Source: an uncultured Anaeroplasma sp. (GTDB lineage: Bacteria; Bacillota_I; Bacilli_A; Acholeplasmatales; Anaeroplasmataceae). From it: DNA of 35,480 nucleotides. Shown here one piece after another: positions 14,410-30,418 of this stretch. Each line of letters starts with the position of its first letter. The first letter of the stretch is position 1. The position numbers and the translations under genes were made by a program. The notes beneath the pieces were generated by a model. It was not told the DNA's origin, made no database searches, and saw only the letters and a list, made by a program, of their open reading frames with translations. The stretch is taken from assembly GCA_945919465.1 (NCBI GenBank), contig CAMEJG010000019.1, positions 1-35,480 on the forward strand, written 5' to 3'.

Positions 14410-14686
14410 AATTGTCTTAAAGATAAATGAATATAGCGTTGATAGGAAGAGTAATTAATTAATGGCTTATAGAGAGGTCTAGTTTGGTGAAATAGACTAG
14501 CAATTATTAATGAACATGGTCCAGGAGCTTCATCTTAAGGCTACTGCTAAATGATGAGGGATTCGCCCTTTAAAGCGATAGAGTATGTTTGTACTCGAAA
14601 AGGCAAATACTGTGAGGTATTTGTGAAGTAAGGTGGTACCACGATTAATTCGTCCTTAAGCAAATGTAGCTTAAGGATTTTTTTTT
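14410..14686 (+). promoter_or_regulatory. T-box riboswitch, probably methionine-specific
   Basis: The leader carries the hallmark T-box sequence AGGTGGTACCACG (14631-14643), followed by a terminator: TCCTTAAG (14653-14660) pairs perfectly with CTTAAGGA (14670-14677), with nine T's to 14686. Upstream is a stem I region with a GGAAGAGTA motif (from about 14444) and, on its 3' side, GAACATGG, where ATG 14516-14518 is the likely specifier codon. Uncharged tRNA would bind the specifier and the T-box and favour the antiterminator, switching on transport when methionyl-tRNA charging is low. The Met specificity agrees with the downstream genes, but the specifier call is tentative. Confidence 0.92.
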
Positions 14687-24152: not shown

Positions 24153-24181
24153 TTGACACCCTTTATTTATTATTTTATAAT
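24153..24181 (+). promoter_or_regulatory. Perfect consensus sigma-A promoter before the EAL genes
   Basis: TTGACA (24153-24158), a 17-nt spacer and TATAAT (24176-24181) match the consensus exactly, in contrast to the weaker promoters elsewhere in the window. Transcription should start near 24188, about 148 bases before the gene. Confidence 0.88.
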
Positions 24182-24187
24182 AAATGA

Positions 24188-24300
24188 AGAGGCATTCACT
24201 TATATTATGACATAGCTAGTAATAACTAGTGATTAGATATAGATACTATAATTAGTATTAAGTTGTCATTTTGAGGATGATTCTTGATGACAACTTTTTT
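24188..24300 (+). promoter_or_regulatory. Structured leader with intrinsic terminator (candidate attenuator or riboswitch)
   Basis: Three successive hairpins follow the promoter: CTAGT/ACTAG (24216-24220/24225-24229), ATACTA/TAGTAT (24243-24248/24253-24258) and a 10-bp terminator stem AAGTTGTCAT/ATGACAACTT (24260-24269/24287-24296) with a T-run to 24300. ATGACA at 24207-24212 repeats the 3' arm of the terminator, so it can pair with TGTCAT of the 5' arm and act as an antiterminator. The sequence does not match the conserved core of c-di-GMP-I (GEMM) riboswitches as I know it. The ligand or factor is unknown. Confidence 0.6.
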
Positions 24301-24335
24301 ATTTTAATACTGATTTCAAGAAAAGAGGAGATCTA

Positions 24336-26774
24336 ATGAGATTAAAGGATTTAAGATTTCATATTTTATTTAGCTTAATATTAATCATTTCATATGCTGC
24401 AATAGCGATATGCTTTTACTTATCTATAAGTAGTGGTAAGGTAGAATCCTCTATGAAGGAATTAGGTCTTGAAAAATCTACTGCATCTGTTGAGCTATTT
24501 AATGAAACAATAAGAAGCTATGATAGAATCTATCAAGCAGATGTAGAGGGAAATAATAGTATTTTCAAGCCATTAGCTACTCAAGCTAGTGAGGAATCAT
24601 TTGCTAATATAAAAGAAGGAGAGCCTAAGGTTATTATCGCACAAGCAAGTAGCTTCGAGTCTGATATTTTAACTGGACTAGAACAAGATAATAATTATTA
24701 TTTATATTTTTATAATCCAAATAGAGCTACTAATAAAATATCTAGAATTTTATTAAATGATTTATTAAATATAGCTTTTGGTGATGAGAAATGGATAGCA
24801 TTAACTCTATATGAAAATACCGATAGAATGATTGATACTAATATTAGTGATAAAACAAGTATTTTATCAAAAAGCTTAACTAGCTTAATTGGTGTTTCTT
24901 CTGTAAATTTAGCAGAAGAGAATGGATATTTTAATGAAATATTAAATATGCCTGGTGATTTAGGTAGAGGTGTATTATCTGGTAATAAAACTATTACCTC
25001 AAATATTTATTTAGCCTTCTTTATTTCCTCTGATGATGCTTTATTAGGAATTTCATGGGTATTAACTCAAGCAATTATTTTTTATTCTAGTGGTATCATT
25101 GTATGTATATTAATGTTAGTAATATTAGTATTGGGCTGTAAAAAGGCTTCAGCATTATTACGTGTTGATAGAAGATCAACAGAAAAAACTAAAGCAATGG
25201 TCATTAGAATTGATCCTAATGGTAAGGTAATATTTACTAATAGAACCTTTAAGCAAATGTATGGATTAACTACTAAGCTTAATAATGTTGATGAATTTAT
25301 TGATGTTTTAACAGAAGAGCCTATATTAGCTACTGTAAAAAAGAATCAAGCATTTGAATGTTCATTAATTACTGATGATGGTATTGTTCATTATCTTCAT
25401 TTATCCCCTTTATATATTTCTAATTCATATTATTTAATGGGTACAGAAATAACAGTAGATTATGAAAGAAGAAAGCATCTAGAGGAAATGAGTGGTAAGA
25501 ATGAAAACACTCGTTGTGATAATGCATTTACATTAGCAAACCAATTTAAAACAATTGTTACAAATAGTGATTCTACAGATTTAGCATTTATTCAATATAC
25601 TATTACAAGATATGAAGATATTATAAAGGTATTTGGTAGAAAAAATTTTGCGGTAGTACAAAATGAATTCTTAACTAAGCTTAGAGAAAATTTTGAGGAT
25701 TTAGCAATTTTTCAATTAAATGATAATCAATTTATTGTTATTTTCCCTAACCTTAATATTGAAGATTCAGTAGAAATAGTTAAAAAGACTGTTGATGATT
25801 TTAAACGTCCTATTCATGTTGAAAAGCATAATGTTTACTTAACTGTAAAAAGTGTTATTTATAATTTAAAAAGAGAAGATTTTGCAGATATTACTCTTGA
25901 TAAGATAATGGATAAGCTAGAGCTTGCCTATAAGAATATTGTTGATTATAATGGTAAGGATTATATATTATATGATCCAGCTATGGATGGTATTTTGCTT
26001 ACTAAAGAGGAAATGGAAAAGGATCTTGAACATGGCTTAATAAATAATGAATTTAAAATGTTCTTACAGCCTCAATTTGATATTATAAATAATAGGGTTG
26101 ATGGTTTTGAAGCTTTAATCCGTTGGATGAATCCTAAATACAATAGACAATCTCCTCAGGTATTCATTGAACTCGCTGAGGAAAGAGGTCATATGCTTGA
26201 TATTGGTAGATTTGTTATCTCAGAATCCTTTAAGCTAGCTAAGAAGCTAGAACCATATAACATTCATATTTCTGTTAATGTTTCACCTATTCAGCTATTA
26301 CAAGCTGGATTCGTTCAAAATATCATTGATGAATTTAATTTATTAAAATTGAAAAAAGGTTCTATTGCGATAGAAATAACAGAAACTTTCTTAATGGATA
26401 ATTTCCATTTAATGAATGAAAAGCTTCATTTATTACGTGATTTAGGCTTTAGAATTCATCTTGATGATTTCTGTACAGGCTATTCTTCATTATTATATCT
26501 TAAGGATTTACCTGTTGATACACTAAAGATTGATAAGGAATTTACTAAGAATATTGTTAATGATAAGGTTTCTGAAAATATCGTAAAAACAATTTGTAAT
26601 CTAGCTAATTCATTAGATCTTGATATTGTTTGTGAGGGTGTAGAATCAGAAGAACAATCAAATATGGTAAAGAAATATGGTTGTAGAGTTATTCAAGGTT
26701 ATCTAATTGGTAAGGCAATGCCTTATGAAGAAGCTTTAGCATTATTAGAACAATATAATCAAAATAGTAAATAG
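24336..26774 (+). CDS. Membrane c-di-GMP phosphodiesterase (PAS-like, degenerate GGDEF, EAL)
   Basis: The product has 812 residues. A membrane helix (~9-30), an extracytoplasmic sensor region to ~240 and a second helix (~242-268) are followed by a PAS-like domain (~285-375, VIRIDPNGKVIFTNRTFKQM), a GGDEF-like fold (~405-560) with LNDNQF in place of GGDEF and no metal-binding Asp pair, and a C-terminal EAL domain. The EAL domain keeps the catalytic set: E592-A-L in GFEALIRW, NVSPIQL, EITETFLM, D710-D711 in LDDFCTGYSS, LKIDKEF and CEGVES. It should hydrolyse c-di-GMP. AGAGGAGA precedes the ATG. The EAL gene at 26786 follows after 11 bases. Confidence 0.88.
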   Translation: MRLKDLRFHILFSLILIISYAAIAICFYLSISSGKVESSMKELGLEKSTASVELFNETIRSYDRIYQADVEGNNSIFKPLATQASEESFANIKEGEPKVIIAQASSFESDILTGLEQDNNYYLYFYNPNRATNKISRILLNDLLNIAFGDEKWIALTLYENTDRMIDTNISDKTSILSKSLTSLIGVSSVNLAEENGYFNEILNMPGDLGRGVLSGNKTITSNIYLAFFISSDDALLGISWVLTQAIIFYSSGIIVCILMLVILVLGCKKASALLRVDRRSTEKTKAMVIRIDPNGKVIFTNRTFKQMYGLTTKLNNVDEFIDVLTEEPILATVKKNQAFECSLITDDGIVHYLHLSPLYISNSYYLMGTEITVDYERRKHLEEMSGKNENTRCDNAFTLANQFKTIVTNSDSTDLAFIQYTITRYEDIIKVFGRKNFAVVQNEFLTKLRENFEDLAIFQLNDNQFIVIFPNLNIEDSVEIVKKTVDDFKRPIHVEKHNVYLTVKSVIYNLKREDFADITLDKIMDKLELAYKNIVDYNGKDYILYDPAMDGILLTKEEMEKDLEHGLINNEFKMFLQPQFDIINNRVDGFEALIRWMNPKYNRQSPQVFIELAEERGHMLDIGRFVISESFKLAKKLEPYNIHISVNVSPIQLLQAGFVQNIIDEFNLLKLKKGSIAIEITETFLMDNFHLMNEKLHLLRDLGFRIHLDDFCTGYSSLLYLKDLPVDTLKIDKEFTKNIVNDKVSENIVKTICNLANSLDLDIVCEGVESEEQSNMVKKYGCRVIQGYLIGKAMPYEEALALLEQYNQNSK

Positions 26775-26785
26775 GAGGCTATAAT

Positions 26786-28345
26786 ATGTTTTTAGAAAAT
26801 ATAAATGATGGCTTAGCTATAGTTATAATGCTAATAGCTGTATTAGTAACTATAGGTTTAGGTGTATTAATGTTTTTCTTAATTAAGAGAAATGTAATGA
26901 AGGAAAAAGAAGAACATGATGTTATTGTTGAAAATGCTATTACTCAAAGAGCAATGGTTGATTCAATAAAACAATTTATTAAAAAGGTAGATCGTTTTGG
27001 AGCAATGACTCTATACTATATTGATATTGATGGCTTTGGTGATTTAAATGAAGTATTTGGTACTGAGGCTTGTGATCAAATATTAAAAGAAATTGCTGCA
27101 AGAATTTTACGTGTTCTACCATATAAGGCTTCCTTATGTAGATATAAAAATGATGAATTCTTAGTATTCATTAAGGATGAAGATAATAAAGGAAGAATTG
27201 AAAAAATAGCTTCTCAAATTAATGAAATAATTAATTCTCCTTATCAGGTTTTAGTTGGTGAATCATTAAATTTAACTGCATCAATTGGTATGGTTACTTA
27301 CCCTCAAGCAGGTGCTACTTTTGATGAACTATATTCTAATTTGGAATTGACTACTTACGTTTCAAAAAGAGATGGTGGTAATAAATTTACTAACTTCTAT
27401 GCCTCAATTAAGGAAGAAGAAACAGACAATATGGTTTATTTCCAAGAAATCAAGAATGCTATTCTTAATAAGGAATTCGTATTATATTTCCAACCTATCG
27501 TTAATTTGAAGGATAAAACTATGGAGGGTGCCGAAGCCCTAATGCGTTGGAATCATCCTACAAAAGGTGTACAAGCTCCATCAACCTTCTTGAAGGTTCT
27601 AGAACAATCAGGAGATATTAAGTGGGTAGGTGAATGGGGTATTGAATCAATGATTCGTATGCATAATCAAATGGCTGAAAAATTCCCTACTATTCCAATG
27701 AGATTCTCACTTAACTTATCTACTAAGCAGCTACTAGACCCAACCTTAGCAACTAAATTTATTGATATTATGAATAAGAATAATGCTAAACCAGATCAAT
27801 ATATGCTAGAAATTTCTGACTTTATGATGGTTGAGCGTATTGCAGTTATTAAGACTAATATTTATAAGCTTAGAGACTTCGGATTTAAAATCGCAGTAGA
27901 CGGATTTGAACTTGATGGTCAATCTGTACAAAATATTCAAAGATCTCCTATCGATGTTATTAAGCTTGGTAGAGGATTCCTTAAGGATATTGAAAACAAC
28001 TTTATGAAGGAAAGATTCTTACAAATTCTTGTTAAATACGCAATGGATAATAACCGTCAATTAATTTGTGAGGGTATTGAAACTGCTGAAGTTACTAAGT
28101 ATGTTAAGGAACAAAATGTATTCTATGGACAAGGTTATTATTTTGCAAAGCCTATGAGTCAAGAGGCCTTTGCAGAATATCTTGAAAAGCATCAATATAA
28201 AGTATTACTTGATGATGTATCATCACTTGAGGATAGTGAAGCATTATTTAAGGATCAAGATATGACTCCAGAAGAAGAGCATGAAGAGACTCCAGAGGAG
28301 CTTCTTGAAAGAATTGCTCGTGGTGAGGATATCGGAGAAAGTTAA
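26786..28345 (+). CDS. Membrane protein with degenerate GGDEF and degenerate EAL domains
   Basis: The product has 519 residues. One N-terminal membrane helix (~10-34) is followed by a GGDEF-like domain (~60-210) with RYKNDEF in place of the GGDEF loop, though YIDIDGFGDLN keeps a metal-type Asp. The EAL domain (~225-470) keeps E250-A-L in GAEALMRW, NLSTKQL and CEGIET, but the loop-6 motif DDFGTGYS is VDGFELDGQS: the second metal Asp is Gly373, and EITE is EISD. Catalysis is therefore doubtful; a c-di-GMP-binding or scaffold role is likelier. An acidic tail ends the protein. It is probably co-transcribed with the active EAL gene 11 bases upstream, and AGGAGG precedes its ATG. Confidence 0.85.
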   Translation: MFLENINDGLAIVIMLIAVLVTIGLGVLMFFLIKRNVMKEKEEHDVIVENAITQRAMVDSIKQFIKKVDRFGAMTLYYIDIDGFGDLNEVFGTEACDQILKEIAARILRVLPYKASLCRYKNDEFLVFIKDEDNKGRIEKIASQINEIINSPYQVLVGESLNLTASIGMVTYPQAGATFDELYSNLELTTYVSKRDGGNKFTNFYASIKEEETDNMVYFQEIKNAILNKEFVLYFQPIVNLKDKTMEGAEALMRWNHPTKGVQAPSTFLKVLEQSGDIKWVGEWGIESMIRMHNQMAEKFPTIPMRFSLNLSTKQLLDPTLATKFIDIMNKNNAKPDQYMLEISDFMMVERIAVIKTNIYKLRDFGFKIAVDGFELDGQSVQNIQRSPIDVIKLGRGFLKDIENNFMKERFLQILVKYAMDNNRQLICEGIETAEVTKYVKEQNVFYGQGYYFAKPMSQEAFAEYLEKHQYKVLLDDVSSLEDSEALFKDQDMTPEEEHEETPEELLERIARGEDIGES

Positions 28346-28351
28346 TTATTT

Positions 28352-28386
28352 TAGTACTAGGAGATAATTCTTCTAGTACTATTTTT
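28352..28386 (+). terminator. Rho-independent terminator of the EAL operon
   Basis: A perfect 9-bp stem TAGTACTAG (28352-28360)/CTAGTACTA (28373-28381) is followed by five T's. Confidence 0.85.
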
Positions 28387-29828: not shown

Positions 29829-29854
29829 ATTAATTGTTACACAATGGGGTGTAT

Positions 29855-30418
29855 ATGAAAAAATTATTTATCTTTTCAATGGATTCTATTTTTAATAGAA
29901 ATTTAGAATTGACTATTAATAAAAATGAATATATGCTAGTATATCCTAATATTAATAATCTAATGCTTTATAGCTATGCTATAAAGAATAACACTAACTA
30001 TATAATTATTCATTCAAGCTTCTTAAATAAAAATTATCAATATATTGATATGTTAATATCTATGAAAAAATATATTGTTATTTATATTTCTAATAATTTG
30101 GAATATGGTTTTTTATATAATGCCCTAAATTCTTCATATTTTCATATGATGAATGATAAATATTTGTCTTCTATTAATGAAATAATTCCTTTAATGGAAA
30201 AAAATACTAAAATATTATGTAGTTTAGAAACTGAGCTTGTTGAGCTAAAAAATAAAATGGAAGAGGAACGCTTAGTTAAAAAGGCTAAGCTATTATTAAT
30301 GAAAAAATATTCATTAACTGAAGATGAAGCATATAAGTTAATTTTAAAGCGTGCAATGGATGATAGAGTATCAAAGATGATTGTTGCAAAAAATATTATA
30401 AAAGAGGTGGAGAAATGA
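29855..30418 (+). CDS. ANTAR-domain RNA-binding regulator
   Basis: The protein has 187 residues from ATG 29855 (GGGGTG at 29846-29851); the in-frame TTG at 29834 would remove the ribosome site. Residues ~1-115 look like a degenerate receiver (alternating strands such as YIIIHSSFL and YIVIYISNN) without the phospho-acceptor acidic pocket. Residues ~125-187 form an ANTAR domain: a coiled coil, then VKKAKLLLMKKYSLTEDEAY and KRAMDDRVSKMIVAKNII, matching the three-helix 'ra.L...y.ltE.eAy..Lrr.Am' signature. ANTAR proteins bind dual-hairpin RNA and block terminators. It overlaps rnfC (ATGA) and is thus tied to the Rnf operon. No obvious dual-hairpin target was found. Confidence 0.8.
   Translation: MKKLFIFSMDSIFNRNLELTINKNEYMLVYPNINNLMLYSYAIKNNTNYIIIHSSFLNKNYQYIDMLISMKKYIVIYISNNLEYGFLYNALNSSYFHMMNDKYLSSINEIIPLMEKNTKILCSLETELVELKNKMEEERLVKKAKLLLMKKYSLTEDEAYKLILKRAMDDRVSKMIVAKNIIKEVEK

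What the first reader, a model, noticed from the sequence alone, without database searches (positions are those of the whole stretch)
24182..24335. Attenuator-like leader of unknown class before c-di-GMP turnover genes
A perfect consensus promoter is followed by a 148-nt leader containing three hairpins, the last an intrinsic terminator. ATGACA at 24207 repeats the terminator's 3' arm and can form an antiterminator with the 5' arm. Leaders before EAL/GGDEF genes are often c-di-GMP riboswitches, but the conserved GEMM core is not visible here. It may be a new riboswitch, a protein-binding attenuator (for example an ANTAR target) or simply an early terminator.
Basis: partly seen in the sequence, partly recalled or inferred. 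Interest (0 to 1): 0.62.

Follow-up and report, generated by a model that had tools for sequence, protein, structure and literature searches.

The report
Decayed c-di-GMP riboswitch, terminator kept
The RNA leader in front of two c-di-GMP turnover genes in an Anaeroplasma-type bacterium appears to be a relic of a known c-di-GMP riboswitch: sister species still carry the intact switch at the same place, but here the signal-sensing part has been erased while the on/off terminator remains.

Summary
A 12/12 sigma-A-type promoter is followed by a 118-nt leader with two hairpins and a strong intrinsic terminator, and ATGACA (24207) can pair with the terminator's 5' arm. Rfam finds nothing, even at E = 10. 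The class is nevertheless identifiable from relatives. The window belongs to the GTDB genus Anaeroplasma. The four orthologous operons that form the sister clade of this one (99/97 support) all have a c-di-GMP-I (GEMM-I) riboswitch between promoter and gene. The focal terminator matches GEMM expression platforms of the genus: 4 of the 5 other matches to its arm pattern in 27 genomes are GEMM platforms. A covariance model of GEMM plus platform, built without the focal sequence, hits 24202-24300 full length; it is the best non-GEMM hit in all 27 genomes (E 0.00035 in the window). The upstream part aligns collinearly with the aptamer (0 of 1000 shuffles), but GACGCAAAGC with A47, the C44-G83 pair and the GNRA loop are gone. 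It is most likely a riboswitch that lost its c-di-GMP pocket and persists as an attenuator with no trigger or an unknown one. It is not an ANTAR target. A re-specialised aptamer is not excluded, because only one genome carries this version.

The parts
24153..24181 (+). Sigma-A-type promoter TTGACA-17-TATAAT; transcription start inferred near 24188
   Evidence: 12/12 consensus. Similar TTGACA/TATAAT promoters lie in front of the GEMM leaders of L003, L004, L006 and L015 (by reading). No start-site mapping.
24188..24206 (+). 5' leader; in the nascent fold parts pair with 24272-24284 to extend P1
   Evidence: Fold of growing transcripts; inferred
24207..24212 (+). ATGACA: antiterminator strand; 24209-24212 aligns with GGCA (positions 20-23) of the GEMM aptamer
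   Evidence: Alignment A3, pairing table, fold
24215..24230 (+). Hairpin aligned with GEMM P2 (GCUAGU-AAUA-ACUAGU); the GNRA tetraloop is lost
24231..24241 (+). Junction aligned with GEMM GACGCAAAGCUAUAG; three bases shorter, with A47 and C44 lost
24242..24259 (+). Hairpin aligned with GEMM P3; the conserved 3' GCC is replaced
24260..24302 (+). Intrinsic terminator (11-bp stem, U-tract), homologous to GEMM expression platforms of the genus
24324..24330 (+). Shine-Dalgarno-like AGAGGAG before the ATG at 24336
   Evidence: Sequence
24336..26774 (+). Membrane protein with degenerate GGDEF (NDNQF) and intact-looking EAL domain (EAL, DDFCTGYSS): likely c-di-GMP phosphodiesterase
   Evidence: Pfam EAL 5.7e-62; motifs read
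26786..28345 (+). GGDEF-EAL protein with both active sites changed (KNDEF; DGFELDGQS); second gene of the conserved pair
   Evidence: Pfam, translation; tandem arrangement in relatives

Best explanation
The leader is a strongly diverged descendant of a c-di-GMP-I (GEMM-I) riboswitch. Its expression platform is kept and its c-di-GMP pocket is lost. As RNA polymerase moves through it, the 5' half first folds into a three-way junction closed by AUGACA/UGUCAU; this holds the terminator's 5' arm. When the 3' arm emerges, the 11-bp terminator takes over and most transcripts stop at about 24300, so the downstream phosphodiesterase operon is expressed from the fraction that reads through. In sister species the comparable terminator should be prevented when c-di-GMP locks the aptamer, an ON switch. 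Here that input is most likely gone, leaving a constitutive attenuator or one with an unknown trigger. Shown by computation: homology of the platform, collinearity of the upstream part, loss of the core, and presence of GEMM at the orthologous site in the sister clade. Inferred: transcription start, termination in vivo, ON logic in relatives, and absence of c-di-GMP response.
For: (1) Orthologous operons in L003, L004, L006 and L015 carry RF01051 hits (60.0-65.8 bits) directly between promoter and gene, and the focal protein is sister to exactly that clade (99/97). (2) The terminator pattern GTTGTCA-N4-34-TGRCAACTTTTT occurs 6 times in 27 genomes: the focal site, four GEMM platforms and one other site (GEMM coordinates). 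(3) Local alignment to GEMM leaders with the TTGTC platform: best score 28.8 versus 14.2 +/- 1.9 in shuffles; platform alone 24.1 versus 12.1 +/- 1.6; 0 of 400 each. (4) The upstream 56 nt, delimited by the platform, align end to end with these GEMM aptamers better than all 1000 dinucleotide shuffles. (5) Model R1, trained without the focal sequence, hits 24202-24300 over its full length: 24.6 bits, E 0.00035 in the window, and is the best non-GEMM hit in 27 genomes; four other weak hits inspected are coding sequence or unrelated terminators. (6) The GGCA/UGUC pairing is kept in all ten aligned relatives and is GACA/UGUC here. (7) Nascent-fold calculation: antiterminator probability about 0.9 until 24290, terminator 0.95 from 24296.
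Against: The aptamer alone is not recognisable: model R2 gives 5.9 bits, E 7 in the window, and a free local alignment of the upstream part is not significant (29 of 400). The upstream hairpins are no more stable than in shuffled sequence (z -0.84). The four sister leaders at this very operon have a different terminator (AGTTGTCT...), and the closest platforms stand before other genes, so the exact line of descent is open. A perfect promoter followed by a strong terminator without a working input would be an odd thing to keep.
Confidence: 0.66

Rival explanations
1. Re-specialised riboswitch: the GEMM scaffold was rebuilt into an aptamer for another ligand. The three-way junction, P2, P3 and the antiterminator would be the working parts, with the old terminator as output.
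For: Promoter, terminator and antiterminator pairing are all intact while the pocket changed. The alternative pair at position 21/92 is restored from G-U to A-U. The nascent three-way junction is predicted at about 0.9 probability, reached by only 15-19 of 500 shuffles.
Against: Only one genome has this version, so conservation cannot be tested. The upstream structure is not more stable than chance. No ligand is suggested by the genes beyond c-di-GMP itself.
Confidence: 0.14
2. Unrelated simple attenuator: a promoter and terminator that resemble the GEMM platform by chance, without common descent.
For: The Rfam model and the genus aptamer model find no aptamer.
Against: Platform similarity far outside shuffles, the pattern's near exclusivity to GEMM sites, the collinear upstream alignment, and the GEMM at the orthologous site in the sister clade.
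Confidence: 0.12
3. The 118-nt terminated transcript is itself the product: a small RNA that keeps the promoter and terminator of the former riboswitch.
For: Perfect promoter, strong terminator, defined short transcript.
Against: No target or conservation evidence; the Shine-Dalgarno and ATG lie about 30 nt after the U-tract, and no second promoter is visible between terminator and gene.
Confidence: 0.05
4. Protein-bound attenuator of the ANTAR type.
For: An ANTAR-domain gene lies at 29834-30418, and two hairpins precede the terminator.
Against: Neither hexaloop has A1 and G4; the hairpins do not overlap the terminator arm.
Confidence: 0.03

Closest known systems
c-di-GMP-I (GEMM-I) riboswitch, RF01051, of the orthologous operons in Anaeroplasma (L003, L004, L006, L015)
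   Same: Same place between promoter and the orthologous gene; same order P1-P2-P3-platform; GUUGUC strand and G20 aligned
   Different: GACGCAAAGC with A47 and C44 lost, GCC before AG lost, GNRA loop lost; scores below any threshold
GEMM-I leaders with an ATGRCAAC terminator in the same genus, mostly before a neighbouring membrane-protein-like gene (L035, L060, L083, L091, L097, L100)
   Same: Nearly the same terminator (AGTTGTCAT...ATGRCAACTTTTTT; AGTTGTCATTTTG identical to L091 and L097)
   Different: They have intact aptamers and stand before another gene
Bc1 c-di-GMP-I riboswitch of Bacillus thuringiensis (PMC11218506)
   Same: GEMM aptamer followed by intrinsic terminators that open when c-di-GMP binds; a response to c-di-GMP in vivo was hardly seen
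   Different: Bc1 keeps the predicted contact residues; the focal leader does not

Membership tests
c-di-GMP-I riboswitch (RF01051) | Match to the Rfam covariance model above 35 bits | tested here: not met
   No hit at gathering or at E 10
c-di-GMP-I riboswitch (RF01051) | Ligand-contact residues G20, A47, C92 (PMC4744006) | tested here: not met
   In the alignment G20 is kept, A47 falls in the deleted/replaced junction, and position 92 is U as in all 13 TTGTC relatives
c-di-GMP-I riboswitch (RF01051) | Interhelical C44-G83 pair and GNRA tetraloop in P2 | tested here: not met
   C44 and G83 replaced; loop AAUA
c-di-GMP-I riboswitch (RF01051) | Common descent with GEMM leaders (platform and collinear aptamer) | tested here: met
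c-di-GMP-I riboswitch (RF01051) | Binds c-di-GMP | not testable with these tools
   Needs in-line probing
c-di-GMP-II riboswitch (RF01786) | Match to the model | tested here: not met
   No match in the own genome at E 10
ANTAR target RNA | Two hairpins with hexaloops having A at 1 and G at 4, the second overlapping the terminator (from general knowledge) | tested here: not met
   Loops UAAUAA and AUAAUU
Intrinsic transcription terminator | Stable stem directly followed by a U-tract | tested here: met
   11 bp, -14.0 kcal/mol, U-run

The most novel reading that the evidence does not exclude
The GEMM scaffold at this site has been rebuilt into a riboswitch for a different ligand, giving a case in which a riboswitch changed its signal while keeping promoter, terminator and target operon.
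Probability: 0.14. Interest if true: 0.72.

Novelty: new variant of a known kind. Interest (0 to 1): 0.42.

Why it matters
Riboswitch classes are catalogued by intact aptamers; what becomes of a riboswitch after its pocket is lost is rarely seen. Here synteny, a tree and a conserved platform identify one beyond the reach of Rfam. If c-di-GMP control is lost, this species has cut a feedback loop (c-di-GMP switching on its own phosphodiesterase) that its sisters seem to keep. If instead the aptamer changed ligand, it would be a rare look at how a new riboswitch class can begin. The approach, a platform-plus-aptamer model combined with synteny, could sort other 'orphan' attenuators.

Tried and rejected
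Rfam at gathering and at E 10 on the leader: only chance hits to eukaryotic snoRNAs and the like. c-di-GMP-II: none. Direct DNA search for the leader in 55 genomes of the family: no close copy, short AT-rich matches only, but two of them lay beside GEMMs, which gave the lead. Single-protein scan of genome contigs: nothing; with an alignment: genus members named, no closer relative. Aptamer-only model R2: not significant. Other weak R1 hits in the genus inspected and rejected as coding or unrelated terminators. Leader peptide: ATG ACA TAG stops at once, rejected by reading. ANTAR target: rejected. Literature: no paper in the library holds both Anaeroplasma and riboswitch.

Full report
What is there. 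The coordinates are right. A 12/12 promoter (24153-24181) is followed by a leader that folds into two AT-rich hairpins and an 11-bp terminator with a U-tract (-27.0 kcal/mol, z -3.0). ATGACA at 24207 can pair with UGUCAU in the terminator's 5' arm. On its own this 6-bp complementarity has a chance of about 4% (86 of 2000 shuffles), and the two upstream hairpins are no more stable than in shuffled sequence (z -0.84). From the leader alone one could not go further; Rfam is silent.

The downstream genes. The first gene encodes a membrane protein with a degenerate GGDEF and an intact-looking EAL domain; the second encodes a GGDEF-EAL protein whose motifs are altered in both domains. The pair is found in tandem in other species of the same genus. 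Named records show that the genus is Anaeroplasma in the GTDB sense, mainly rumen and gut MAGs plus A. bactoclasticum.

The relatives give the answer. Reading the sequence in front of 17 orthologues and scanning it with Rfam shows c-di-GMP-I riboswitches in front of eight of them. In four (L003, L004, L006, L015) the riboswitch sits exactly where the focal leader sits, between a TTGACA/TATAAT-type promoter and the gene. A protein tree places the focal protein as sister to precisely these four (support 99/97). The focal genome has seven GEMM-I riboswitches elsewhere and none here.

Is the focal leader descended from a GEMM? Three tests say yes. First, the terminator arm pattern GTTGTCA...TGRCAACTTTTT occurs only six times in 27 genomes; besides the focal site, four are GEMM expression platforms and one is not. 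Alignment of the focal platform with GEMM platforms scores 24.1 against 12.1 +/- 1.6 in shuffles. Second, when delimited by the platform, the 56 nt upstream align end to end with the aptamers of the TTGTC subclass better than all 1000 dinucleotide shuffles: GACA with GGCA, CTAG..CTAGTGA with P2, AGATATAG with AGCTATAG, and AAGTTGTCAT with CAGTTGTCAT. Third, a covariance model made from ten GEMM-plus-platform sequences, without the focal one, hits 24202-24300 from first to last position with 24.6 bits, E 0.00035. In all 27 genomes it is the best hit after the true GEMMs, and four other weak hits that were inspected are coding sequence or unrelated terminators.

What has been lost. Of the positions invariant in 79 GEMMs of the genus, the focal sequence lacks the heart of the pocket: the junction GACGCAAAGC has become GAUUAGAU (A47 and C44 gone), AGCCAG has become AUUAAG (G83 gone), and the GNRA loop of P2 is AAUA. 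The contact residues and the interhelical pair are taken from PMC4744006. The aptamer-only model scores 5.9 bits, indistinguishable from background. Membership in RF01051 as a functional c-di-GMP riboswitch is therefore not claimed; descent from it is.

How it works. Folding growing transcripts gives a three-way junction closed by AUGACA/UGUCAU, extended by pairing of the 5' leader with the later terminator loop, with probability about 0.9 up to 24290; from 24294 the terminator dominates. In relatives the terminator's 5' arm is likewise shared with the aptamer (GGCA/UGUC and AGCU/AGUU), so ligand binding should prevent termination (inference; c-di-GMP opening terminators is described for Bc1, PMC11218506). 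In the focal leader the ligand-dependent part is missing. The best reading is a residual attenuator whose read-through is fixed or controlled by something unknown. The alternative, an aptamer with a new ligand, fits the intact promoter, terminator and antiterminator but has no comparative support, since no second genome with this version was found. Both readings agree on origin.

Caveats. The best platform matches are GEMM leaders that stand before other genes rather than the four leaders at the orthologous operon, whose terminators differ. Whether the focal leader was inherited in place or copied from such a paralogue is open. Nothing about transcription was measured.

Noticed in passing
GEMM-I riboswitches of the genus (A4; e.g. 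L076, L077, L078 in the own genome; L048, L049, L088, L096): 21 of 79 aligned GEMM-I aptamers of the genus have A instead of G at position 20, the change that marks cGAMP-responsive GEMM-Ib riboswitches in Geobacter (from general knowledge); three are in the window's own genome.
   Followed up: partly
L003, L004, L006, L015, L034, L035, L059, L060, L083, L090, L091, L097, L100: 13 of 79 GEMM-I aptamers have U at the position aligned with ligand-contact C92, always with G20 and always with a GTTGTC platform; also seen in L146 and L150 from other Tenericutes. Possibly altered ligand preference or affinity.
   Followed up: partly
L010:1298-1375: A weak R1 hit (11.5 bits, E 0.87) in front of the orthologous operon of G005, near the distance at which its sister L008 has an intact GEMM: perhaps a second decayed GEMM.
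   Followed up: partly
window 29834-30418: ANTAR-domain protein without a recognised sensor domain, directly after a serine hydroxymethyltransferase gene; its RNA target is unknown.
   Followed up: no
window 14430-14660: T-box leader, 120.5 bits.
   Followed up: no
L059 (G021:C58), L005, L007, L034: Tandem GEMM-I aptamers: three in a row in L059, two in L005, L007 and L034.
   Followed up: no
window 28352-28381: A long, nearly perfect hairpin (TAGTACTAG-GAGATAATTCTT-CTAGTACTA) just after the second gene, perhaps the operon's end.
   Followed up: no
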